A DNA stretch of 42,392 nt from a candidate division FCPU426 bacterium (GTDB lineage: Bacteria > Oederibacteriota > JAAXVQ01 > JAUVAV01), in the NCBI GenBank assembly GCA_030591525.1, contig JAUVAV010000027.1, positions 1-42,392 on the forward strand. The letters are read 5' to 3'. The position numbers were made by a program, and so were the translations under genes. The notes below the pieces were generated by a model, which saw only the letters and a list, made by a program, of their open reading frames with translations, was not told where the DNA came from and did no database searches. Shown piece after piece: positions 1 to 27,459 of the stretch. The first letter of the stretch is position 1. Every line of letters begins with the position of its first letter.

Positions 1-1
1 G

Positions 2-226
2 GATGAGGCCAGGGCTGAGCAGGCGAGGATAGAGCAAGCCAAGGCGGATGAGGCCAGGGCTGAGCAGGCGAGGATAGAGCAGGCCAAGGCGGATGAGGCC
101 AGGGCTGAGCAGGCGAGGATAGAGCAGGCCAAGGCGGATGAGGCCAGGGCCGAGCAGGCGAGGATAGAGCAGGCCAAGGTGGATGAGGCCAGGGCTGAGC
201 AGGCGAGGATAGAGCAAGCCAAGGCA
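2..226 (+). repeat. five tandem 45-bp coding repeats
   Basis: Units begin with GATGAGGCC at 2, 47, 92, 137 and 182 with an exact 45-bp period. They differ at only a few positions (CAA/CAG, GCT/GCC, and GCG to GTG at 179). The unit is a multiple of three and encodes 15 residues, so copy number can change without a frameshift. The array probably extends upstream of the window. Confidence 0.95.
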
Positions 227-928
227 GCAAAAAAGGGATATGTCAAAGTGCCGGAAGCAAAGGAAGGTAAAGTTAAAAAGAAAGAAATACGGATTCCTGC
301 GCCCATAGATGAGAAAAAAGTAAAAACCGGAAAATCACGAGAAATTGATGAGAGGAAAACAGTAAGACAGGCAAATCCAATATCCATGGAAATTAGTGAG
401 AAATTTATTCCGGTCAGGGAAAATTGGTTTGCGGAATGTGTTGATAAAATTGGGGTTTATAATAAAAAACAAAAAAAAGACAGCGAGCGAATTATTATTA
501 ATAATCAGCGGATCGGCGGGGAAGCGGAAATAGTCCTCAAAGTTCTGCAAATAAAGGTAGTCAATGATTATCTCGGACAATACAAGTACTTGGAGGACAA
601 TGCCGGGGTTGGTTTTAAGGATAAACTGGAGGCTTGCGTTTTTGCAGAGCAGAGCGCTGAATGCTTAACCTATTCGAAAAAGCTCCAGACCGATAAAGAC
701 GGAGATTCACATTTAGAAGAAAATAAGGGCGCGCAATTCCTGGAAATGGCCCGCGCAGTGGCGGCCTATATCGTTTCTGCGCCGGATTCGAAAGCCGCCG
801 CTAAGCTGGTGGCGGAAAATATTCCGGGATTTATTGACCTTACGCATATCGCGAGCGCCCAGGCTTTGGGTGATAAAAAAACCGCGGCAAAACTTTCCAG
901 CAAAATAGAGAATTTAAAAAGGAGATGA
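2..928 (+). CDS. coiled-coil repeat protein, 5' end outside the window
   Basis: The reading frame is open from the first bases of the window, so the gene starts upstream; a GTG at 179 is in frame but lies inside the repeats and is not a credible start. The N-terminal part is at least five copies of a 15-residue unit, ADEARAEQARIEQAK, rich in Ala, Glu, Arg and Gln and expected to form a long charged helix or coiled coil, TolA-like in composition. A Lys-rich stretch follows, then about 180 residues of mixed, apparently globular sequence that I do not recognise. It ends in RR and a TGA only 7 bases before the next ATG, and the AAGGAG serving that gene lies in its last codons, so the two are almost certainly cotranscribed. 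Function unknown; a structural partner or scaffold for the downstream signalling protein is a guess. Confidence 0.75.
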   Translation, partial: DEARAEQARIEQAKADEARAEQARIEQAKADEARAEQARIEQAKADEARAEQARIEQAKVDEARAEQARIEQAKAAKKGYVKVPEAKEGKVKKKEIRIPAPIDEKKVKTGKSREIDERKTVRQANPISMEISEKFIPVRENWFAECVDKIGVYNKKQKKDSERIIINNQRIGGEAEIVLKVLQIKVVNDYLGQYKYLEDNAGVGFKDKLEACVFAEQSAECLTYSKKLQTDKDGDSHLEENKGAQFLEMARAVAAYIVSAPDSKAAAKLVAENIPGFIDLTHIASAQALGDKKTAAKLSSKIENLKRR

Positions 929-935
929 GCTGATC

Positions 936-2198
936 ATGAGTCAAGCCCTTGAGATGTCTTGTCAAAGAAACAGATTGCTGCCTAAGGTTACTGTTCTCCG
1001 GGTTAGAGGAGTAATTGATTCCGATACGGCTGCGGTTTTTGAAAAGGAACTGGAAACTCTGTTGGAAGAGGAGCACTACCGTCTTTTGGTAGACCTGACC
1101 AAGGTTAATTATATTAGTTCGGCCGGCGTCGGCATCTTTGTCGGATTACTGCAGAAATTCCGGGAGCAGCCGGAAGGAGATATGAAAATCTGCAACGCTT
1201 CTTCGAAAATCATGAAGGTGTTTGAAGCCATTGGACTGGATCATCTAATGGAATTTATAAAGGCTGAGTCGGATTTGAAAGCCTGGAAAGCGGAAACCCA
1301 GATTACCGAGGACTTTGATCATTTCCATATAACCTGTGTTGCTGACAAAAAATTCAGCGGCGAGGAATTTAATCTGCGCGTAGAAGCCAGAGATGCCGAT
1401 CAAAACTTGATAGACGATTATAAAGAAAAACCCCGGATAAGCGTATCGGACGGTCTGGTATTCCCGAGAGAACTGTCGGGTTTTGCGCATGGAATATGGG
1501 AAGGCCGCATAGTCATGACCGGCACCGGCCAAGTCGAGCTTGGTTTGAGTCATGAAAAAAAACAGAGCGTTTTGAAGATAAATTTGCAGGCCAGACCGGG
1601 GCAGGCTGAATTTCCGGTAAAAGTAAATTGCCGCACCTGCCGGAATGAAGTGAAGGTAAAGGCGCCGGATATTTACCGCTGTGAGGAATGCGACGAAACC
1701 TTTTTGGTTGATGCCTGGGCGCATGTTTTCACTATCAAGCCGGGAAGCACGGCCAAAAGAAGAAAGACCCGCTACAAAGGAATGGAACTAAAAATTAATG
1801 CTGATTTCAAGTATATCGGCGTTATCCGCCGGACTATCAGCGGTTTATGCGAGCAGGAAGGCATGGACGAGGAAACTACCAACACGGTGGCCCTGGCCAT
1901 CGAGGAAATCCTGCATAATTTGGTGGAACACGGCAATGATTTTGATCCCTGGCAGATTTTCCGGATCCGGCTGGATTTTCAGAAAAAGCAGTTGAAAATC
2001 CAGATTCGTGATTACGGAGATCCTTTCGATGTCACCCAGCAGAAAGATATCTCCCTTAAATCCAGCGCCCTGAAAGGCTCCAAACGGGGAGTCGGGAATT
2101 TTCTGGTCAACCAGATGATGGATAGCGTAAAATATGAAAGCCTTAAGAATTACAACCAGTTGACCATGCTGAAGTATTATGATGTTTCGGAGGATTGA
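936..2198 (+). CDS. STAS - beta domain - zinc ribbon - HATPase fusion (antagonist and anti-sigma-type kinase in one chain)
   Basis: 420 residues with four parts. Residues 1-115 form a STAS domain; the segment YISSAGVGIF aligns with the SpoIIAA/RsbV phosphorylation site, placing the acceptor at S62. Residues ~125-220 are a beta-rich, Ig-like stretch. Residues 230-255 hold a zinc ribbon (C232, C235, C249, C252). Residues ~285-420 are an RsbW/SpoIIAB-type HATPase with N-box E324/N328, the DYGDPF motif at 359-364 and a GVG lid motif at 385-387. In classical partner switching, the kinase phosphorylates a separate STAS protein and sequesters a sigma factor; here both are on one polypeptide. No signal peptide or membrane segment is seen, so it should be cytosolic. 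The ATG follows AAGGAG by 11 bases. A full-length paralogue lies at 24681-25916. Target unknown; no sigma factor gene is nearby. Confidence 0.88.
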   Translation: MSQALEMSCQRNRLLPKVTVLRVRGVIDSDTAAVFEKELETLLEEEHYRLLVDLTKVNYISSAGVGIFVGLLQKFREQPEGDMKICNASSKIMKVFEAIGLDHLMEFIKAESDLKAWKAETQITEDFDHFHITCVADKKFSGEEFNLRVEARDADQNLIDDYKEKPRISVSDGLVFPRELSGFAHGIWEGRIVMTGTGQVELGLSHEKKQSVLKINLQARPGQAEFPVKVNCRTCRNEVKVKAPDIYRCEECDETFLVDAWAHVFTIKPGSTAKRRKTRYKGMELKINADFKYIGVIRRTISGLCEQEGMDEETTNTVALAIEEILHNLVEHGNDFDPWQIFRIRLDFQKKQLKIQIRDYGDPFDVTQQKDISLKSSALKGSKRGVGNFLVNQMMDSVKYESLKNYNQLTMLKYYDVSED

Positions 2199-12877: not shown

Positions 12878-15328
12878 ATGACTAAAAATGGACCTAATCG
12901 CATGAAACCAAAAATAAAGCCAAAGGTTCTTCCGTTTATGCCGCTCCGGGATATGGTGGTTTATCCGAATATGATTGTATCCCTGTTTGTAGGACGAAAA
13001 AAAACTGTTAGGGCTTTGGAAGAATCCATGCAGCAGGGCCGGAAGATCGCTTTGGCCGCACAACGGCAAGCTCAAATTGATGATCCCGCCCTGGAAGATA
13101 TTTACGAGGTAGGAACGATTGTCCGGATTCTCCAGGTTTTGAAAATGCCGGATGATTCTTTTAAAGTTCTGGTCGAAGGACAAGAACGTATACGCATCAG
13201 GGGATTTCGTGCCCGGGACAACTATTTTACCGTGGATTATGAAGTTAGCCCTTACGAAATTCAAACCGGGGCGATAGTACAAACGGCTATGCGGAATGCC
13301 TTGGAGTTGTTCGGGAAGTATGCCCGTTTATCCAAAAATATTCCCGCCGATATACTAACTTCGCTGAACCGAATGAAAGATCCCCATAGGTTGACGGATC
13401 TCATGGCAGAGCAACTTCCTTTTCCGGTCGATAAAAAGCAAAAACTGCTGGAAATGGTAAAGCCCTTGGCCCGCCTGGAGGCTTTGGCTGAATTATTATA
13501 TAATGAAATTGAACTCCGGGAAATTGAGCGCCGGATTAAGGGACGCGTACGCAAACAGATAGATATTACCCAGAAAGAGTATTATTTAAACGAACAGATC
13601 AAAGCTATCCGCAAGGAACTTGGTCAAAAAGACGTGGAAAGCGAGAACGAGGAACTGGTCCAGCGAATAAAAAACGCCCAAATGCCAAAAGGAGCAGAAG
13701 ACAAGGCTACGAAAGAATTGGCGCGGCTTGATCGCATGCCGCCCATGTCTCCGGAAGCTACGGTAACCCGGACGTATATTGAGTGGTTAGTAGCCTTACC
13801 CTGGTCGTTTCAAACCCCGGAAAAGCTTGATCTTCGGATAGTGGCACGTACTCTGGATAAAGATCATTATGGACTTAGGAAAGTTAAGGACCGGGTACTG
13901 GAATATCTGGCAGTAAGGAAGCTGGCTCCCAAAATGAAAGGGCCGATTTTATGTTTGGTGGGACCGCCGGGCGTGGGCAAAACTTCATTGGCCCGTTCCG
14001 TTGCCGCTGCCATAAACCGTAAATTTGTTCGAATCTCCCTGGGAGGAGTTCGCGACGAGGCTGAAATCCGGGGGCACCGGCGTACTTACATTGGGGCTAT
14101 GCCGGGAAAAATTATTCAATCCCTGAAAAACGCCAAAAGCCGGAATCCGGTTTTTTTATTGGATGAAATTGATAAAATGGGATCTGATTTCCGGGGGGAT
14201 CCGGCCTGCGCCCTGCTGGAAGTACTTGATCCCGAGCAAAACCAGGCTTTTAACGACCATTATCTGGATTTGGATTTTGATCTATCGAACATAATGTTTA
14301 TTGCCACTGCCAATATCTTTCAAAATATCCATCCTACTCTGCGGGACCGCATGGAGATCATAGAAATCCGGGGATATACTCAGGAAGAAAAAACTCAGAT
14401 TGCGCAAAGGCATTTAAATGCACGCTTATTGGAAGAACACGGCCTGACCACTAAAGACCTGGTGCTATCACGGCCGATGATTGAAAAGATAATCGCAGAA
14501 TATACCTTTGAAGCCGGGGTACGTAATTTGAACCGCGAAATTTCGGCTCTGATGCGCAAAGTGACAAGATTGAAGGTTGAAAAAAAATCACCTTTAAAAG
14601 CAAAAGAACTGACCGCCCTCGAGCTGACAAAATTATTGGGCCCTCCCAAGATACTGCGGCGAAAAGGCGAAAAGGCGGATGTTGTGGGTATAGCCACCGG
14701 CCTGGCCTGGACCGAGAACGGCGGTGAAATTCTGACCATCGAAGTCGTGCCTCTGCCGGGAAAGGGACAATTGATATTGACAGGAAAATTGGGAGATGTC
14801 ATGAAAGAGTCCGGTCAGGCGGCCGTAAGTTATGCCCGCAAGCATGCGAAGGATTTTCATATTCCGCCTGATTTTTACCATAATTCGGATATTCATATTC
14901 ATGTGCCGGAAGGTGCCATACCGAAAGACGGGCCTTCGGCTGGAATTGCTATGGCGGCGGCTTTAGTTTCAGCGTTCTCGGGGATTCCCATAAGAAAAAA
15001 TACTGCTATGACCGGCGAGATAACCCTGCGGGGGCGGGTTTTGGGCATCGGGGGCTTGAAAGAAAAGCTGCTGGCAGCCATGCGGGCGGGAATTAAAACT
15101 GTTATTATTCCTCATGAAAATCAGAAGGATCTAGTGGATCTGCCGGTAGAAGTAACCAGAAGCCTGGAGATTAAATTAGTTCAGAATATGCAGCAGGTTT
15201 TGGAGGTCGTTCTGGCGCGGGAGAAGAGAAGCCAGGTTAAAACGCGGAAAGCTTACGCAAAAAAAGCCCGGGAACAAACGAAACAGCCGGTTGACCAAAA
15301 CGGTATTTCGCCTCCGGCGGTTATGTAA
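12878..15328 (+). CDS. lon: ATP-dependent Lon protease
   Basis: 816 residues, full length. An N-terminal substrate-binding (LAN) domain begins at VLPFMPLRDMVVYP. The AAA+ module has Walker A GPPGVGKT at 362-369 and Walker B VFLLDEIDKM. The C-terminal protease has the catalytic dyad S687 in PKDGPSAG and K730 in GLKEKL, with the usual 43-residue spacing. The tail is Lys/Gln-rich and variable. It degrades damaged and regulatory proteins in the cytosol. It follows clpX by 14 bases with a weak ribosome site; ATG 12902 is an alternative start. The stop is followed within 18 bases by a repeat array. Confidence 0.97.
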   Translation: MTKNGPNRMKPKIKPKVLPFMPLRDMVVYPNMIVSLFVGRKKTVRALEESMQQGRKIALAAQRQAQIDDPALEDIYEVGTIVRILQVLKMPDDSFKVLVEGQERIRIRGFRARDNYFTVDYEVSPYEIQTGAIVQTAMRNALELFGKYARLSKNIPADILTSLNRMKDPHRLTDLMAEQLPFPVDKKQKLLEMVKPLARLEALAELLYNEIELREIERRIKGRVRKQIDITQKEYYLNEQIKAIRKELGQKDVESENEELVQRIKNAQMPKGAEDKATKELARLDRMPPMSPEATVTRTYIEWLVALPWSFQTPEKLDLRIVARTLDKDHYGLRKVKDRVLEYLAVRKLAPKMKGPILCLVGPPGVGKTSLARSVAAAINRKFVRISLGGVRDEAEIRGHRRTYIGAMPGKIIQSLKNAKSRNPVFLLDEIDKMGSDFRGDPACALLEVLDPEQNQAFNDHYLDLDFDLSNIMFIATANIFQNIHPTLRDRMEIIEIRGYTQEEKTQIAQRHLNARLLEEHGLTTKDLVLSRPMIEKIIAEYTFEAGVRNLNREISALMRKVTRLKVEKKSPLKAKELTALELTKLLGPPKILRRKGEKADVVGIATGLAWTENGGEILTIEVVPLPGKGQLILTGKLGDVMKESGQAAVSYARKHAKDFHIPPDFYHNSDIHIHVPEGAIPKDGPSAGIAMAAALVSAFSGIPIRKNTAMTGEITLRGRVLGIGGLKEKLLAAMRAGIKTVIIPHENQKDLVDLPVEVTRSLEIKLVQNMQQVLEVVLAREKRSQVKTRKAYAKKAREQTKQPVDQNGISPPAVM

Positions 15329-15345: not shown

Positions 15346-15617
15346 GTAGGGGCGGACTTCCATGTCCGCCCGTTCGCCTAATGCAAAATGCTGGGCCGGC
15401 ATGGAAGCCGGCCCCTACGTTTAAAATAACCGCGAAAATGTTTTGTGTGTTGGTCTTATGGTTTTATGTAGGGGCGGACTTCCATGTCCGCCCGTTCGCC
15501 TAATGCAAAATGCTGGGCCGGCATGGAAGCCGGCCCCTACGTTTAAAATAATCGCGGAAATGTTTTGTGTGTTGGTCTTATGGTTTTATGTAGGGGGCGG
15601 ACTTCCATGTCCGCCCT
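15346..15617. repeat. tandem 122-bp repeats of GTAGGGGC palindromes
   Basis: GTAGGGG recurs at 15346, 15468 and 15590, giving two nearly identical 122-bp units and a truncated third. Each unit holds two hairpins: GGCGGACTTCCATGTCCGCC, and GGGCCGGC/GCCGGCCC around ATGGAA. The few differences are in the AACCGCGAAAATG segment. Related palindromes lie at 29888-30135 and 35702-36008. This fills the lon to aminotransferase gap; no gene is supported. Confidence 0.9.
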
Positions 15618-20505: not shown

Positions 20506-22461
20506 ATGTTCTGCAATCGGCAAAAAAAAATCTTAATATCTATAATTTTTCCGGTTTTTTTTTGTTTCGGGATTCTAATATACCATCCGGCCGAAGCTAA
20601 TAATTCAACCAATAGAAATACCTCCTCCGTTACGAAAGCTTCCGATGCGCAATTCAATAAGGGGTTAAAATATTATAACCGCGGCAAATATCAAAAATGT
20701 CTTGCTCCCTTGCAGGCTGCCGTTAAAATTAATCCTCAGGATAGTGAAGCATTACTTTTGCTGGGAACAGCCTATTTACATCTGAAGAAATATGATAAAG
20801 CGAAAAGATATCTGATAAAAATTCTGGAATTAGTTCCGGGAGATATCGACGCTTCGAATAATTTGAGCTTGGTTTACTTCAATCAAAAGCGCTATTCGGA
20901 AGCGATTAGCCAACTGCAGAAAAGTCTTAGGATAGATTCTAAAAATATCGATGCCCTTACTAAGCTGGGATATATTTATTATAAACTGGGCAAATTCGAT
21001 GATGCCATTAGAACCTATAGGCGTTTACATAAAATTAAACCGCAAAGCGGTAAAATTCAGGAGCGTTTGGCTTTACTTTATATAAAATGTAAAAAGTATG
21101 ATGAAATAATAAGATTTTATTGCCAAATCAATAACCGCCGGCATTTAAATGCCTGCCTCCTAACCAAGGTCGGTTTGGCCTATTATTATAAAGGTGACTT
21201 TAAAAAAGCCGGCCGGCGCTTGAAAGAGGCGGCTAAAAGAGATCCCGGAAAAGCGGAACCTCATTATGTATTGGGATTGATAGCTCACAAGCAGGCTGCG
21301 CTTGATGCGGCCATTAGGGAATACAAGCAAGCGGTTAAACTCAGGAAAAATTATCCCGCAGCGGTTAATCAATTGGCGACGGCCTACGAGGATAAGGGCG
21401 AATACCATAAAGCGTTGTATTATTATCAGATTAATTTAAAGCTTAAACCTAATGATCGTAAGGCTAAGCGGGATTATGATGCCGTTAAGTCTAAGGCGAT
21501 TGATTATTATCTCCGCAAAGGCAGTAAAGCCTATTTTCGTAATGACTATAATAAGGCTTTGCGTTATTGGGGACGGGTCTTGAAGCTGGCCCCGCATAAC
21601 GCCAATGCTAAAAAATTCATCAAAACCGCGAAGAAAAGACTTGCGGCGAAAGTGAAATTACGGAATGATCGTGCCGATGCTTTTTATCAAAAGAAATTAT
21701 TTCGGGATGCCCAACAGGAATGGAGCGAGGCGCTGAAGCTGAATGCGGAAAATAAACGGGCCCGTGCTGGTTTGGGAAAAATTAATTTGCACAATCAAAA
21801 GCAGGAGGAAAGACGGATCGCAAAAGGCCCCAAGCGTGTCAACCGCAGCAATCGGCAGGCCGCGCTTAAGGGTTTTAAAGGCACGCTTAAAACCGGATCG
21901 AAAAAAAAAGCGTCCCGGCAGTATGTTAATAGTATACCCACCGGACAAAAAAAACGTTCGGAGCAAAGTTATCGCAAGGGGATTGAATTGTTTTCCAAGG
22001 ACAAGCTGAGGGAAGCCATCGCCTGCCTGGAACAGGCGCTGGAAGTGGATAGTAATAACCAGGGAATAAAAAATTTGCTATATAAAGCCCGCACGCGGCT
22101 GCGGGAAAACGTTAAGGCGCTACGGTCGCGGGGAATTGAACTGGCCAATGCCGGACGCCTGCCGGAAGCCAAAGAAAAGTTTAATCTGATACTTGAGCTT
22201 GATCCGGATAACGCCGAAGCGCGGGAGCATTTATCCAAACTTAACGGCAGCAGCGTTCAAATAGTAGTCAGCAAGGAAAAAATCAAAAAACTTTATTATG
22301 ATGGAGTCTCGCTTTATCTGGACGGAAAAAACAAGGGGGCGATTAAAGTCTGGCGGAAAATCCTGCTTTTAGATCCTGAAAACGAAGAAGCTAAAAGCTC
22401 TATTGTAAAGGCGCAAATGGAATTAAAGGAAATGGAAAAAAGAGGGATTGGAACGGAATGA
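20506..22461 (+). CDS. exported TPR-repeat protein
   Basis: 651 residues. A hydrophobic N-terminal segment (residues ~9-30, ending HPAEA-NN) looks like a signal peptide. About thirteen TPR units follow, eight in a nearly continuous N-terminal block (~45-330) and more toward the C-terminus, separated by a Lys/Arg/Gln-rich linker at ~425-480. Units show the usual pattern, e.g. LGTAYLHLKKYDKAKRYL and LGYIYYKLGKFDDAIRTY. The protein is very basic. Its TGA overlaps the ATG of the phosphatase gene (ATGA), so the two are translationally coupled and likely work together; the TPR protein could be a periplasmic ligand or partner for the phosphatase sensor. That role is inferred from the coupling only. 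Confidence 0.85.
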   Translation: MFCNRQKKILISIIFPVFFCFGILIYHPAEANNSTNRNTSSVTKASDAQFNKGLKYYNRGKYQKCLAPLQAAVKINPQDSEALLLLGTAYLHLKKYDKAKRYLIKILELVPGDIDASNNLSLVYFNQKRYSEAISQLQKSLRIDSKNIDALTKLGYIYYKLGKFDDAIRTYRRLHKIKPQSGKIQERLALLYIKCKKYDEIIRFYCQINNRRHLNACLLTKVGLAYYYKGDFKKAGRRLKEAAKRDPGKAEPHYVLGLIAHKQAALDAAIREYKQAVKLRKNYPAAVNQLATAYEDKGEYHKALYYYQINLKLKPNDRKAKRDYDAVKSKAIDYYLRKGSKAYFRNDYNKALRYWGRVLKLAPHNANAKKFIKTAKKRLAAKVKLRNDRADAFYQKKLFRDAQQEWSEALKLNAENKRARAGLGKINLHNQKQEERRIAKGPKRVNRSNRQAALKGFKGTLKTGSKKKASRQYVNSIPTGQKKRSEQSYRKGIELFSKDKLREAIACLEQALEVDSNNQGIKNLLYKARTRLRENVKALRSRGIELANAGRLPEAKEKFNLILELDPDNAEAREHLSKLNGSSVQIVVSKEKIKKLYYDGVSLYLDGKNKGAIKVWRKILLLDPENEEAKSSIVKAQMELKEMEKRGIGTE

Positions 22462-23999
22462 ACACGACGACTTCCCCGGTCCGGCCGCAAAAGGTATCCC
22501 GGTCTTCGTCATCCCGGCATAAAAAAGGCGGTTTGCGGTATAAGTTCGGCTTGTCCATTACACTGCTATTAACCTTAACCATCATTTTTATTAGTTTTTT
22601 TGCTCTCCAGGGCGAGCAAGTGGCGCTGCGCAACGAGATGGAGCAAAGGGGCATAACTATTGCCCGGAATATCGCCGCGAATGCGGCCAAGCCCCTGTTG
22701 CGCGGTGAAATCCTATCCCTGGCTTCACTGGTAAAAGATGCTTTAGAAAATAAAAGCGTGACCTATGCGCAAATCGTGGATGATGATAGCATCATCGTAG
22801 CGCATAATAAATTGCAGAAATCCGGCTCCGTCTATCACCGGCCCCCGGGCGTGGAAGCGTTGCAGAACCGCTCCATTGCCGTTTCCGAGGTATTTCTTTA
22901 CCAAGGCGATAAAAATGTAGATGTTGCCATCCCGATTCTTCTGAAAAAACAAGTCAAATTGGGCGAAGTGCATATCGGTCTCTCCCAAACCCACATTGAT
23001 ACCGTCATCCGCCAAGCGGTTATGCAAATTATTGTTTTAGCAGTTATTTTTGTGGTGCTCGGTATTATTGTAACCATGATTTTGGTCAGCGTTATTGTTC
23101 GTCCGATTAAAGCCCTGGAGGCCGGAGCCGATATTATCGGCCACGGAAATCTGGATTATACCATTAAGGTGGAGAGTCAGGATGAGATTGGAAATCTGGC
23201 GAGTTCCTTTAATCGGATGACAGTTGATTTAAAGGATGCCCAAAAGAAAATTATTGAAAAAGAAAAGATGGAGCAGGAACTGGAAACCGCCCGTAAGATC
23301 CAGTCGGTTCTCCTGCCCAAAGAATATCCTGCCCTGGAAGGTTTTCAAATCGTCGCATTTTATAAATCCGCTAAAGTAGTGGGCGGTGATTATTATGATT
23401 TCCACAGGATCAACGACAAATTACTGGGCATAACGGTAGCCGATGTTTCCGGTAAAGGCGTGCCTGGTTCGCTGGGTATGGTGATGACGCGGAGTATCCT
23501 GCGTTCCCAGACTTATTTAGGCAATGCCTGCGGAACATTGTCAAAAACCAACCGCCTGCTGTTTAGAGATATTAAAAGGGGAATGTTCGTGACTATGTTT
23601 TACCTAGTGCTGGATTATGAAAAAAAGACGCTGGATTGTTCCAATGCGGGTCATAATCCCATGATGTTAGGTCATAAAAACGGCCAAGTTGAATTATTTA
23701 ATCCGGCCGGAATAGCTTTAGGCTTGGATGAAGGGAAACGTTTTGATAAGAAATTGCAACCCGTGAATCTCAAGCTAAAGTCAGGCGATACCTTCATTCT
23801 ATACACCGACGGAGTTACCGAGGCTATGAATAAGCAGGAGCAAGAATTTTCCGAAGAGCGGCTGGCCGAAATATTGGGCAAAAATGTTTATTTAGACGCC
23901 CAAGAATTAAGTGATACTATTATTAACGAGTTAATGGGATTTACTTCCGGAGCCGGCCAGCACGATGATATTACCCTGGTAACGGTTAAGGTGGAATAA
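22458..23999 (+). CDS. membrane SpoIIE/RsbU-type phosphatase with sensor and HAMP
   Basis: 513 residues. TM1 at ~30-50, periplasmic sensor at ~51-188, TM2 at ~189-213, HAMP at ~214-267, a short coiled coil, then a PP2C-like SpoIIE domain (~285-513). Metal-binding aspartates are visible: D311 in VVGGDYYDF, D329 in VADVSGKGVPG, D451 in YTDGVTEAMN and D503/D504 in HDDITLV. Members of this family dephosphorylate STAS antagonists, freeing them to bind the kinase. Likely substrates are the STAS protein 24112-24474 and the STAS domains of the two fusions. The sensor is related to that of the chemoreceptor at 7169. It is translationally coupled to the upstream TPR gene. Confidence 0.92.
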   Translation: MNTTTSPVRPQKVSRSSSSRHKKGGLRYKFGLSITLLLTLTIIFISFFALQGEQVALRNEMEQRGITIARNIAANAAKPLLRGEILSLASLVKDALENKSVTYAQIVDDDSIIVAHNKLQKSGSVYHRPPGVEALQNRSIAVSEVFLYQGDKNVDVAIPILLKKQVKLGEVHIGLSQTHIDTVIRQAVMQIIVLAVIFVVLGIIVTMILVSVIVRPIKALEAGADIIGHGNLDYTIKVESQDEIGNLASSFNRMTVDLKDAQKKIIEKEKMEQELETARKIQSVLLPKEYPALEGFQIVAFYKSAKVVGGDYYDFHRINDKLLGITVADVSGKGVPGSLGMVMTRSILRSQTYLGNACGTLSKTNRLLFRDIKRGMFVTMFYLVLDYEKKTLDCSNAGHNPMMLGHKNGQVELFNPAGIALGLDEGKRFDKKLQPVNLKLKSGDTFILYTDGVTEAMNKQEQEFSEERLAEILGKNVYLDAQELSDTIINELMGFTSGAGQHDDITLVTVKVE

Positions 24000-24111
24000 G
24001 TACTATGCGAAAAAGGGAAATAATTTTGTTCTAGAGTAAAAATTACTTTATATGCAATTTTATTTGTGCTAAACTTTCGCTTCGAAATAATCGAGGCGGG
24101 GAGGTGTATTA

Positions 24112-24474
24112 ATGAAGAAAATCAATGTAAGTGTCCGGGATTCGGCCCTTAATTCCGGGTGCACAGTAATTGATGTAGCCGGCTTCCTAGATGCGTATAC
24201 GGTCGCGGAACTCGAGGAAGTATTTAATTTTCTGATAAAGGAAAAAAAATTCAAACTGATTGTGAATTTGGGTAAACTCGATTATATTAGCAGTGCTGGA
24301 TTAGGGACTTTCATGGGCGTAATTGATGAAATTCGGGACAATCAGGGTGACATCATGTTAACGAATCTTTCGCCTAAAATTTACAAAGTTTTTGATCTTT
24401 TGGGATTTTCCGAGCTGTTTTTAATAGTGGAAGATGAAGCCGCGGCGGTAGCTAAATTTCAGGAAGGTCATTAG
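24112..24474 (+). CDS. stand-alone STAS anti-sigma factor antagonist
   Basis: 120 residues, one STAS domain of the SpoIIAA/RsbV type. The site LDYISSAGLGTF places the phosphorylatable serine at S61 by alignment with SpoIIAA S58. Ala replaces the second Ser found in SpoIIAA, and the same ISSAG is present in the fusion at 936. Unphosphorylated protein would bind the HATPase kinase; phosphorylated protein would be released and recycled by the phosphatase encoded 112 bases upstream. A strong GGGGAGGTG ribosome site precedes the ATG. Confidence 0.92.
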   Translation: MKKINVSVRDSALNSGCTVIDVAGFLDAYTVAELEEVFNFLIKEKKFKLIVNLGKLDYISSAGLGTFMGVIDEIRDNQGDIMLTNLSPKIYKVFDLLGFSELFLIVEDEAAAVAKFQEGH

Positions 24475-24636
24475 TTTTTTCTATTCCCCCCTATGCCTTC
24501 TCGCTCAAGTGAGAGGCAACACCATTTCTGAGTTTGAGAAGCATTGGCGATTCGACCCCATATTTAAAGTGTTGCAGGGAGTTTAGCAGCGTCTGATTTT
24601 AAAATAAAGATAATCCTTTGCAGGTAGGGAGAAAGG

Positions 24637-24657
24637 ATGCCGGGAAGCCCGATTTAA
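24637..24657 (+). other. possible short upstream ORF before the second STAS fusion
   Basis: ATG at 24637 has a good ribosome site (AGGGA, 6 bases away) but opens only six codons (MPGSPI) before TAA at 24655. The fusion gene begins 23 bases later with a poor ribosome site. This could be a leader ORF that couples translation by reinitiation, or chance. Confidence 0.3.
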
Positions 24658-24680
24658 ATCAGGTTTTTCCAAGTGAAGAG

Positions 24681-25916
24681 ATGAAAAAGCTGGAAATTTA
24701 CTCGCGATATGCCGGCAGACGGAATGAAGTAAACATTCTCGATTTTAAAGGTTCGCTGAACATAACTACGTTCAATCAGTTTGAGGGTTTCCTGAAACCA
24801 TTTTCAGGAGAAGGTGCAGTGAAAATTGTCCTTAATTTTTCACAGTTAACCAGCATCAGTTCCTTTGGTCTGGGCCTTTTGGCGGGAATGATGCATAACC
24901 CGGATGGCCTAGAGGATGTTAATCTCGCCGAAGTGCCTAAGAAAATCAAGCAATTATTAGAAAAAGTACAGCCGGCGGAATATCGGTATAAAATTTTTGA
25001 GCATGAATCGGAAGCTGTTCAATTTTTCCTGAACCAGCAAACTTCTGCCTATGCTCATCATTTTGTGCTGACGTCCCCCCCAGCGGAGGTTATTTCCGGA
25101 AAGCCATTTATCTTGGAAATCGCGGCTTATGATGCCTCCGATCATTTGATAGAAGCATACCAGGGAAAACCTCATTTGATCGTGGATAGAGGTATGGTTT
25201 CACCTACCCTGATAACTGATTTTAAGCATGGTTTATGGGAAGGCAAAGTAATTGTAACCGGTAACGGTCCGTTGCAGTTTTTCGCTTGGGATGAGTGCGG
25301 CTGGGGTGAAACTACCATACGCCCCAAAGCGCAGGGAGAACCGGCTAAATTTCCCATTGTAGTTGTCTGTTCCGGCTGTGGTAAAAATAATATTGCAGGT
25401 AAAACCGATTTTTTTCGATGCATTCAATGCAATGAAATCTATTTTGTGGACTGGTTTGGCCATGTGGTGCCTTTAAAACCCGGTAATACGAAAAGAGCCG
25501 ATTTTGTCAAACACCTGGAATTTAAAATTCCCAGCGATGTTAATTACCTTAATCATGTCCGGAATTTTATCATGGGGATATGCAGTGAGGAAAAAATAGA
25601 CGAAGAAAAAATCACTCAAATCGAAATGTCTCTCGATGAAGCCTTGGCGAACGTGATAGAACACGCTTACTCGTTTGATGCCTACCAGGAAATACGAGTT
25701 AATCTTTGGATTTATGCCCATAAATTGGAAATCGTCATTAAGGATTACGGACGCTCGTTTGACAGCGAACGCCTGCCCCTTCCGGATATTAAAAAGCATA
25801 TTGAAGAACGGCGGATCGGCGGTTTAGGGCGTTATTTGATTAAAACCTTGATGGATGAGGTGACGTATCATAAAGCTTTACATTGCAATGAACTCCGTAT
25901 GATCAAGCGATTTTAA
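24681..25916 (+). CDS. STAS - beta domain - zinc ribbon - HATPase fusion, second paralogue
   Basis: 411 residues from ATG 24681, the start that aligns with the paralogue at 936; the frame is open to a TTG at 24618 that lacks a ribosome site. STAS domain at 1-118 with acceptor S61 (SISSFGLG); beta-rich domain at ~125-215; zinc ribbon with C230, C233, C247, C250; RsbW-type HATPase at ~275-411 with N-box E320/N324, DYG at 355-357 and GGLG at 380-383. All four parts occur in the same order and nearly the same spacing as in the first copy; FKHGLWEGK here matches FAHGIWEGR there. The N-box (SLDEALANVIEHAY) is closer to RsbW than in the first copy. It probably belongs to the partner-switching set with the phosphatase and STAS genes just upstream. 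Its target is not in the window. Confidence 0.88.
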   Translation: MKKLEIYSRYAGRRNEVNILDFKGSLNITTFNQFEGFLKPFSGEGAVKIVLNFSQLTSISSFGLGLLAGMMHNPDGLEDVNLAEVPKKIKQLLEKVQPAEYRYKIFEHESEAVQFFLNQQTSAYAHHFVLTSPPAEVISGKPFILEIAAYDASDHLIEAYQGKPHLIVDRGMVSPTLITDFKHGLWEGKVIVTGNGPLQFFAWDECGWGETTIRPKAQGEPAKFPIVVVCSGCGKNNIAGKTDFFRCIQCNEIYFVDWFGHVVPLKPGNTKRADFVKHLEFKIPSDVNYLNHVRNFIMGICSEEKIDEEKITQIEMSLDEALANVIEHAYSFDAYQEIRVNLWIYAHKLEIVIKDYGRSFDSERLPLPDIKKHIEERRIGGLGRYLIKTLMDEVTYHKALHCNELRMIKRF

Positions 25917-25946
25917 CCTACCTCCTCCCCGGAGGGCGGGGTAGGG
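25917..25946 (+). terminator. hairpin after the second fusion gene
   Basis: CCTACCTCCTCCCC pairs imperfectly with GGGCGGGGTAGG immediately after the stop codon. There is no U-tract. The following 90 bases before the GGDEF gene contain a CCCGCCTTGAAAGGCG repeat. Confidence 0.35.
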
Positions 25947-26040
25947 TGATACGAGATGTAGAAAAGCATTATTTCTTTCCCGCTTCATCCCCGCCTTGAA
26001 AGGCGCGAATTCGCGGCTGTGGATTAAAAAGGAGATATCC

Positions 26041-27459
26041 TTGGTTTGCTTTAAAGGAATCAAACAGCAACAAAGTGTTTTTTGGCTGGCTATTTATGGG
26101 AGCGTGTTTTTAACCCTGGGTCTGGTTTTATCCACCATAATAGGTCTTCGGCAGCTGACTGCCGGTTATCGAGTTTTAATTTTAGTGGTTAACGGCTTGC
26201 TGATAGTTGTAGCCGTTTTGCTTATTTATCAGTTGTTTTTCCGTTTTTTTAAGCCGATAAAGCTTTTGCTTCGGGAGACCCGGGAGACTTTGCAAGGAAT
26301 TCGCAAAGACGGAATAACCATGGTTCGGGATGACGAAATCGGAGTTCTGGCCAACAATTTCAACCGGATTATACTGGACGATCAGATGAAACGCATAGAG
26401 TTGGAGAACTCCAATCAGGAACTGGCTTCCCATGCGGACATTATTGAAAAAACCTACCGGGAGCTCGATAAAAAAATATATGATCTTTTTACCCTCTTTG
26501 GTATCGGTAAAGAACTGAATTCCACTCTTTCGCTGGAAACTATTCTGAAAATCACTTGCTTCACTTCCATGGGACAAGTAGGCGTTACGGTTATGACCAT
26601 TATGCTGCTGGAGGAGAAGGGCGAGACCCGAATGGTTTGCCAATATACCAAGGGACTGCGGAAGGATCCGAAGAGACCGGAAGCTTGCCGGTTTAGTATG
26701 GAGTTCCTGAGTCTGCTGCGTTTGAATGAACAGCCTTTTTTATTTTCCGCCCTGGAGGGGAGGCCGCATTTAAAGACCGAGATGGATTTTTTAAATAAGT
26801 ATAAGACTTTTATCATTGCTCCTTTGACGGCCAAAGACCAGGTTATCGGTATGCTGCTCCTGGGTAAAAAATTATCCGGCGAGGAGTTTGTACAGGGAGA
26901 AAAAAATTTTCTCGCCACCCTGGCATCCTTAGCCGCGCTGGCCTTGAGAAATGCCAGGTATTATGAACAGGCCATAACCGATGATTTGACCAAACTTTAT
27001 CTTAAACGTTACTTCCAGCTGCGCCTGGAGGATGAAATCAAGCGGGCGACACGGTATCAAAACAAGATAACTTTAATCATGATGGACCTCGATCATTTTA
27101 AGGAGATTAATGACACTTATGGTCATGTCCAGGGCGACAAGGTTCTTAATCGAATTGGCGAGGCGATTAGGGAAAATTTCCGGGACGTTGATGTTGCCGC
27201 GCGGTATGGCGGAGAGGAATTCTCGGTCATTATGCCGGAAGTCTCTAAAAGTCTCGCTTTAATTGCGGCTGAACGCCTGCGTAAATATATTGAAAATATC
27301 TCTTTCCGAGTAAATGAAAAAGGAATTAATGTGACTATTTCCATAGGACTGGCGGAATTTCCGGAAGACGGCAAGTCTCCCATACAACTGGTCGAAGCCG
27401 CGGATAAAGCTTTGTATTGCGCAAAGGAGAATGGGCGTAATCAAACGATGTTGGCCTGA
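26041..27459 (+). CDS. membrane diguanylate cyclase with GAF and GGDEF domains
   Basis: 472 residues from a TTG at 26041, chosen because AAGGAG lies 6 bases upstream; the frame also extends to 25996 without a ribosome site. Two membrane segments lie at ~12-36 and ~45-68, then a HAMP-like stretch, a coiled coil, a GAF-like domain (~150-300) and a GGDEF domain (~312-472). The active site reads RYGGEEF (GGEEF at 390-394) and the metal-binding MDLDHF is intact, so it should make c-di-GMP from two GTP. An RxxD inhibitory site (RDVD, 381-384) is present, implying product feedback. No EAL or PilZ gene is in the window. Confidence 0.92.
   Translation: MVCFKGIKQQQSVFWLAIYGSVFLTLGLVLSTIIGLRQLTAGYRVLILVVNGLLIVVAVLLIYQLFFRFFKPIKLLLRETRETLQGIRKDGITMVRDDEIGVLANNFNRIILDDQMKRIELENSNQELASHADIIEKTYRELDKKIYDLFTLFGIGKELNSTLSLETILKITCFTSMGQVGVTVMTIMLLEEKGETRMVCQYTKGLRKDPKRPEACRFSMEFLSLLRLNEQPFLFSALEGRPHLKTEMDFLNKYKTFIIAPLTAKDQVIGMLLLGKKLSGEEFVQGEKNFLATLASLAALALRNARYYEQAITDDLTKLYLKRYFQLRLEDEIKRATRYQNKITLIMMDLDHFKEINDTYGHVQGDKVLNRIGEAIRENFRDVDVAARYGGEEFSVIMPEVSKSLALIAAERLRKYIENISFRVNEKGINVTISIGLAEFPEDGKSPIQLVEAADKALYCAKENGRNQTMLA

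What the first reader, a model, noticed from the sequence alone, without database searches (positions are those of the whole stretch)
936..2198. Antagonist and anti-sigma-type kinase fused in one polypeptide
The protein carries an N-terminal STAS domain with a conserved acceptor serine (S62) and a C-terminal RsbW-type HATPase. In the described SpoIIAA/SpoIIAB and RsbV/RsbW systems these are separate proteins, and switching depends on their exchange. Here the kinase could phosphorylate its own STAS domain, in cis or across a dimer, giving a self-contained switch. The full set of partners is unknown.
Basis: partly seen in the sequence, partly recalled or inferred. Interest (0 to 1): 0.78.

Follow-up and report, generated by a model that had tools for sequence, protein, structure and literature searches.

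The report
Switch kinase fused to its substrate
In a little-known bacterial phylum, the substrate and the kinase of a classic on/off signalling switch are joined in one protein; the joining itself has been published twice before, but this version adds two extra domains, has a partner gene of its own, and has a sister copy whose attached substrate is decaying.

Summary
ORF 936-2198 (420 aa) is STAS (16-110), an Ig-like domain (about 125-222), a CxxC...CxxC zinc ribbon (225-258) and an RsbW-type HATPase (288-412). Acceptor Ser62, the ATP-binding boxes and both sides of the known RsbV-RsbW contact are intact. The novelty claim fails: M. tuberculosis Rv1364c carries an RsbW-type kinase that phosphorylates its own STAS domain, and Actinoplanes SipA is STAS plus RsbW HATPase in one chain.

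The organism belongs to Candidatus Firestonebacteria. Thirteen four-part proteins occur in 9 of 45 phylum genomes, and a shorter STAS-zinc-HATPase form occurs in 3 more and in 2 genomes of another phylum. The window holds a second copy (24681-25916) in a phosphatase-STAS-kinase-diguanylate cyclase cluster. In that lineage the fused STAS is decaying (26% identity between genomes, acceptor lost once, domain absent in three), while the separate STAS stays 80-90% identical. In the copy flagged here the fused STAS is strongly constrained, with no separate STAS beside it and a membrane/coiled-coil partner gene found only in the same five genomes.

Best reading: a partner-switch module whose kinase phosphorylates its own STAS. 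The output is unknown and probably not a sigma-B-type factor. New variant of a known kind.

The parts
936..2198 (+). A-type kinase P0001, 420 aa: STAS - Ig-like - zinc ribbon - HATPase
   Evidence: GGAG at 921-924, 11 bases before the ATG
981..1265 (+). STAS domain (residues 16-110)
   Evidence: Pfam 1.5e-14; RsbV/SpoIIAA matches
1119..1121 (+). codon of acceptor Ser62, equivalent to RsbV Ser56
   Evidence: alignment to 6m36; kept in 15 of 16 fused STAS domains
1308..1601 (+). Ig-like beta-sandwich, no Pfam family
   Evidence: AlphaFold pLDDT 88; fold matches to S-layer SbsC, filamin and macroglobulin domains, best E 6.4e-4; Pfam none for this protein
1602..1745 (+). zinc ribbon, C232/C235/C249/C252
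   Evidence: all four Cys invariant in 19 of 19 proteins; weak Zn-ribbon profile hits
1797..2171 (+). RsbW-type HATPase (residues 288-412): R298, E324, N328, DxG 359-361, GxG 385-387 kept
   Evidence: Pfam 7e-22; residues invariant in 19 of 19
1..928 (+). upstream partner gene, 5' end cut off by the contig start: (ADEARAEQARIEQAK)n repeat and a conserved C-terminal domain (374-925); stops 7 bases before P0001
   Evidence: the domain occurs only in the five genomes with an A-type kinase, adjacent each time
24681..25916 (+). B-type paralogue with the same four parts (alternative TTG start 24618); fused STAS degraded at contact residues (D28N, Y59S, K94Q)
22458..23999 (+). sCache-HAMP-SpoIIE phosphatase of the B cluster
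   Evidence: Pfam
24112..24474 (+). separate STAS protein of the B cluster, contact residues intact
   Evidence: Pfam 1.7e-16; 80-90% identical between genomes
25996..27459 (+). GAF-GGDEF diguanylate cyclase of the B cluster (GGEEF motif present)
   Evidence: Pfam GGDEF 7e-49; synteny in G002, G004, G005, G006

Best explanation
P0001 is a partner-switch module of the RsbV/RsbW kind with substrate and kinase joined. Inferred mechanism: the HATPase domain, acting as a dimer as RsbW does, binds the STAS domain of its own chain or of the sister chain and phosphorylates Ser62. Phospho-STAS lets go and leaves the kinase face free for another partner. A separate PP2C phosphatase removes the phosphate, so that STAS clamps the kinase again. 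Fusion keeps substrate and kinase at 1:1 and makes the phosphatase signal the only variable input. The Ig-like domain and zinc ribbon would serve docking or sensing. The likely partner is the co-encoded membrane/coiled-coil protein, not a sigma-B-type factor. Shown: domains, intact residues, constraint, and the co-occurring partner gene. Inferred: phosphorylation, cis or in-dimer geometry, trans phosphatase, partner and output.
For: Domain matches. RsbW R23 and E49 and RsbV D23, Y53, S56, R84 and R87 (PMC7340262) map to R298, E324 and D28, Y59, S62, K91, K94, all kept or conservatively replaced in all five A-type proteins. The fused STAS of the A type is held at 62-82% identity to P0001 in the pairs compared, close to its HATPase at 69-99%. 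Control by nature: in the B lineage, where a separate STAS stands upstream, the fused STAS drops to 26% identity between G000 and G006, has lost the acceptor in G006 (S62P) and is missing in G002, G004 and G005, while the separate STAS keeps 80-90%. The STAS-less B proteins form one clade (96/97). The short STAS-zinc-HATPase form directly follows a SpoIIE phosphatase gene in G008 and G028. Upstream partner: 5 of 5 A-type genomes, 0 of 39 others. Precedent for self-phosphorylation of a fused STAS: Rv1364c.
Against: No activity was measured. The full-length model is weak (pLDDT 67, pTM 0.49) and does not decide whether STAS docks on the kinase. No phosphatase gene lies next to P0001. C-type proteins (G016, G010) keep an intact fused STAS although a separate STAS stands upstream, so the two do not exclude each other. 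The B-lineage decay is one lineage. A-type proteins and their partner come from one family of genomes, so co-occurrence is partly shared descent.
Confidence: 0.55

Rival explanations
1. The fused STAS is a docking or inhibitory domain, not mainly a substrate: it occupies the kinase or recruits other STAS proteins, and the true substrate is one of the separate STAS proteins encoded elsewhere in the genome.
For: In Actinoplanes SipA the fused STAS binds the HATPase and is predicted to bind on a different face from the partner STAS; phosphorylation was not tested there (PMC10733313). The genome has many separate STAS proteins. C-type loci have both a fused and a separate STAS.
Against: Acceptor Ser and the classical contact residues are kept in every A-type protein, which mere docking would not need; no separate STAS is next to the A-type gene.
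Confidence: 0.25
2. Classical anti-sigma module: the HATPase of P0001 holds a sigma factor and the fused STAS replaces RsbV.
For: RsbW-type HATPase closest to the RsbW and SpoIIAB models; the genome encodes a 262-aa FliA/WhiG-like and a 412-aa RpoD-like sigma factor besides RpoD and ECF-type factors (classified by my reading of the sequences).
Against: No sigma gene near any of the fused genes examined; no sigma-B/F-type factor recognised; six HATPase_c_2 kinases score above 75 bits, too many for one group-3 sigma factor. The B copy sits with a diguanylate cyclase instead.
Confidence: 0.15
3. The module controls cyclic-di-GMP synthesis, as the SiaABC and BgrUVW switches do.
For: The B cluster is phosphatase-STAS-kinase-GGDEF in G000, G002, G004, G005 and G006; SiaABCD and BgrU/V/W/R are partner switches acting on a diguanylate cyclase (PMC7647112).
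Against: This applies to the B copy. P0001 has no GGDEF gene beside it; the A2 copy has one only about 3 kb away on the other strand.
Confidence: 0.15

Closest known systems
Actinoplanes missouriensis SipA (AMIS_54230), PMC10733313
   Same: N-terminal STAS and C-terminal RsbW-type HATPase in one polypeptide; the two domains were shown to interact
   Different: 243 aa, no Ig-like domain or zinc ribbon described; partner is a sigma factor carrying its own STAS; phosphorylation not examined
Mycobacterium tuberculosis Rv1364c (PMC9138534, PMC7693655)
   Same: RsbW-type kinase and STAS in one chain; the kinase phosphorylates its own STAS (Ser600)
   Different: Also carries PAS and PP2C phosphatase; STAS is C-terminal; no Ig-like domain or zinc ribbon
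Bacillus RsbV/RsbW and SpoIIAA/SpoIIAB
   Same: Both domains, acceptor Ser, ATP boxes and contact residues
   Different: Separate proteins; act on a sigma factor encoded nearby
Pseudomonas SiaABCD and Sinorhizobium BgrUVWR (for the B copy)
   Same: Phosphatase, kinase, STAS-like protein and diguanylate cyclase together
   Different: The kinases there are not described with Ig-like, zinc-ribbon or fused STAS domains; membership of the SiaB/SiaC families was not tested

Membership tests
Anti-sigma factor antagonist (RsbV/SpoIIAA superfamily) | STAS domain above curated cut-off | tested here: met
   ant_ant_sig 61.7 vs 53.45; STAS 54.1 vs 22.6
Anti-sigma factor antagonist (RsbV/SpoIIAA superfamily) | phosphorylatable Ser at the RsbV Ser56 position | tested here: met
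   S62
SpoIIAA equivalog | TIGR02886 above cut-off | tested here: not met
   48.4 vs 114.75 bits
RsbW-type switch kinase | HATPase_c_2 domain with catalytic Glu, N box, DxG, GxG | tested here: met
   78.2 vs 27.4 bits; E324, N328, D359-G361, G385-G387 invariant
RsbW equivalog (anti-sigma B) | PRK04069 or TIGR01924 above cut-off | tested here: not met
   59 vs 145 and 53.8 vs 155 bits
RsbW (anti-sigma B) | binds and inhibits a sigma factor | not testable with these tools
   no sigma gene next to it; binding needs experiment
Rv1364c-type fusion | kinase and STAS in one polypeptide | tested here: met
Rv1364c-type fusion | PP2C phosphatase in the same chain | tested here: not met
   no SpoIIE match in P0001
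SipA-type fusion | STAS N-terminal, RsbW HATPase C-terminal | tested here: met
   PMC10733313
SipA-type fusion | adjacent sigma factor with its own STAS | tested here: not met
   neighbouring ORFs hold none
Partner switch acting on a diguanylate cyclase (B copy only) | phosphatase, STAS, kinase and GGDEF genes in one cluster | tested here: met
Partner switch acting on a diguanylate cyclase (B copy only) | STAS controls cyclase activity | not testable with these tools
   needs experiment

The most novel reading that the evidence does not exclude
P0001 and its membrane/coiled-coil partner form a two-gene signalling unit in which a substrate-kinase fusion, tuned by a zinc ribbon and an Ig-like domain inside the cell, switches a membrane-anchored protein rather than a sigma factor or a cyclase. 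That would be a new output class for partner switching.
Probability: 0.25. Interest if true: 0.62.

Novelty: new variant of a known kind. Interest (0 to 1): 0.42.

Why it matters
Partner switching is usually explained as exchange between free proteins. A lineage in which substrate and kinase are fused, with a sister lineage whose fused substrate is decaying beside a conserved free one, is a natural experiment on when fusion is kept and when it becomes redundant. The two extra domains and the private partner gene make the question of input and output testable. The basic fusion idea, however, is already published for Rv1364c and SipA.

Tried and rejected
Chance ORF or assembly artefact: rejected (dN/dS about 0.11, conserved neighbourhood in G001). 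Broken kinase: rejected, all ATP-site residues kept. Scan of genome contigs found only two loci of one close relative because its peptide patterns are narrow, so it was not used as evidence of absence. Known family for the Ig-like domain: Pfam gave only one-member weak hits (MG4 0.0075, Filamin 0.098) and the solved-structure profile search only a weak hit to the FdeC adhesin (0.0053); the fold search supports an Ig-like sandwich but names no family. Upstream partner: no match among solved structures for its C-terminal domain; Pfam found nothing for the window's copy above cut-off and only weak membrane-helix-type hits for the G003 copy. Full-length model used only for domain folds, not for domain arrangement. 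A literature search including 'Firestonebacteria' returned no relevant paper among those listed. The original Rv1364c paper (PMC2785613) is not held; a review and a later paper citing it were used.

Full report
WHAT IS THERE. ORF 936-2198 on the + strand encodes 420 residues. Pfam places STAS at 16-110 (1.5e-14) and HATPase_c_2 at 288-412 (7.1e-22), both well above their cut-offs. One is a roughly 100-residue domain without a Pfam family. Folded on its own it gives a confident model (pLDDT 88), and its fold matches are Ig-like sandwiches (S-layer SbsC, filamin, macroglobulin, intimin; best E 6.4e-4). The other is a zinc-ribbon-like CxxC...CxxC whose four cysteines are invariant in all 19 relatives compared. 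Sequence and fold searches lead to RsbV/RsbW and SpoIIAA/SpoIIAB. The full-length model is mediocre (pLDDT 67, pTM 0.49), so I draw nothing from its domain arrangement. Against the nearest relative dN/dS is about 0.11, with the HATPase almost unchanged, so this is a real gene under purifying selection.

SECOND COPY IN THE WINDOW. A paralogue with the same four parts lies at 24681-25916, and a third copy lies on contig C81 of the same genome. The second copy stands in a cluster: sCache-HAMP-SpoIIE phosphatase (22458-23999), separate STAS (24112-24474), kinase, GAF-GGDEF (25996-27459). I call the copies A (936-2198), A2 (C81) and B (24681-25916).

SURVEY. Titles of near relatives name Candidatus Firestonebacteria. 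Forty-five genomes of the phylum are held. Four-part proteins occur in nine of them, thirteen proteins in all: five A, four A2, two B and two in more distant genomes (C type). A three-part form without the Ig-like domain (D type) occurs in three more genomes (G008, G028, G011); in G008 and G028 it directly follows a SpoIIE phosphatase gene. In a sample of 384 genomes, most from other phyla, no further four-part protein was found, but the three-part form appears in two genomes of one family in another phylum (G159, G296). Only up to four candidates per genome were scored in that search, so absence elsewhere is not firm.

DOES THE FUSED STAS MATTER? The RsbV-RsbW crystal structure gives the contacts: RsbW Arg23, Asp42, Lys44/Ser48, Glu49 and Tyr118 with RsbV Asp23, Arg84/Arg87, Tyr53, Ser56 and Ile91, Glu49 touching the phosphorylated Ser56 (PMC7340262). 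Mapped by the alignments, P0001 has R298 and E324 on the kinase side and D28, Y59, S62, K91 and K94 on the STAS side. RsbW Asp42 and Lys44 are not conserved (T317 and A319 by my count). The mapped set is intact in all five A-type proteins, nearly so in A2, and intact or conservatively replaced in C and D types. The B lineage is the contrast: the fused STAS of G000 has D28N, Y59S and K94Q; that of G006 has Y59H, S61T, S62P and K94Q, so the acceptor is gone; in G002, G004 and G005 the kinase starts at the Ig-like domain and has no STAS at all. Between G000 and G006 the B-type fused STAS is 26% identical, the HATPase of the same protein 64%, and the separate STAS upstream 82%. Between A-type proteins of comparable divergence the fused STAS is 62-79% identical and the HATPase 69-80%. 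Where a separate STAS took over, the fused one decayed; in the A type it is kept. Two limits: the B decay is one lineage (STAS-less proteins one clade, 96/97), and C-type proteins keep an intact fused STAS beside a separate one.

PARTNER GENE. The gene ending at 928, seven bases before P0001, is cut by the contig start inside a 45-bp tandem repeat. Its C-terminal domain (374-925) occurs in exactly the five genomes with an A-type kinase, always directly upstream, and in none of 39 other phylum genomes. The G003 copy is complete enough to show two hydrophobic N-terminal segments before the charged repeat, so I read it as membrane-anchored. All five genomes are of one family, so shared descent contributes, but G004 of that family lacks both genes (its assembly is 87% complete). 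I take this as the best lead to input or output of the A type.

OUTPUT. The genome has eight sigma-70 region 2 matches: by my reading RpoD, an RpoD-like 412-aa protein, a FliA/WhiG-like 262-aa protein and five ECF-type factors. No sigma-B/F-type factor is recognised, while six HATPase_c_2 kinases scoring above 75 bits and seven SpoIIE domains are present. A dedicated anti-sigma role for each kinase is therefore unlikely. For the B copy, the neighbour suggests control of a diguanylate cyclase, as in SiaABCD and BgrUVWR (PMC7647112).

COMPARISON WITH WHAT IS KNOWN. They are not. Rv1364c carries PAS, PP2C, kinase and STAS in one chain, and its kinase phosphorylates its own STAS at Ser600 (PMC9138534, PMC7693655). 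SipA of Actinoplanes missouriensis has the same order as here, STAS then RsbW-type HATPase, in 243 residues, with the two domains shown to interact; its authors knew of no earlier protein with that domain structure (PMC10733313). What is new here is the Ig-like and zinc-ribbon insertion, the co-occurring partner gene, the expansion in one phylum, and the contrast between kept and decaying fused STAS. I file it as a new variant of a known kind.

VERDICT. Observation confirmed. Interpretation partly supported: cis or in-dimer phosphorylation of S62 is plausible and fits the constraint pattern, but it is not shown, the module is not self-contained because no phosphatase is included, and the fusion is not unprecedented.

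Noticed in passing
window 22458-27459: Phosphatase - STAS - kinase - diguanylate cyclase cluster, syntenic in at least four other genomes of the phylum; looks like a partner switch acting on cyclic-di-GMP synthesis.
   Followed up: partly
L016 7637-10174 (own genome contig C10): One ORF of 845 aa joins an RsbW-type HATPase, sCache, HAMP and a SpoIIE phosphatase, i.e. kinase and opposing phosphatase in one protein, followed by a STAS match in a 286-aa open frame; similar long frames occur in other genomes of the phylum.
   Followed up: partly
window 1-225: 45-bp tandem repeat, five copies, coding for a charged repeat in the truncated upstream gene; the contig ends in it.
   Followed up: partly
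window 15346-15616: 122-bp tandem repeat, 2.2 copies, 97% matches, in the gap after the Lon-like protease gene that ends at 15328.
   Followed up: no
L103 and L104 (other phyla): Gene order phosphatase - STAS - HATPase - tandem GAF with a second phosphatase domain, an arrangement parallel to the B cluster with a different output domain.
   Followed up: partly
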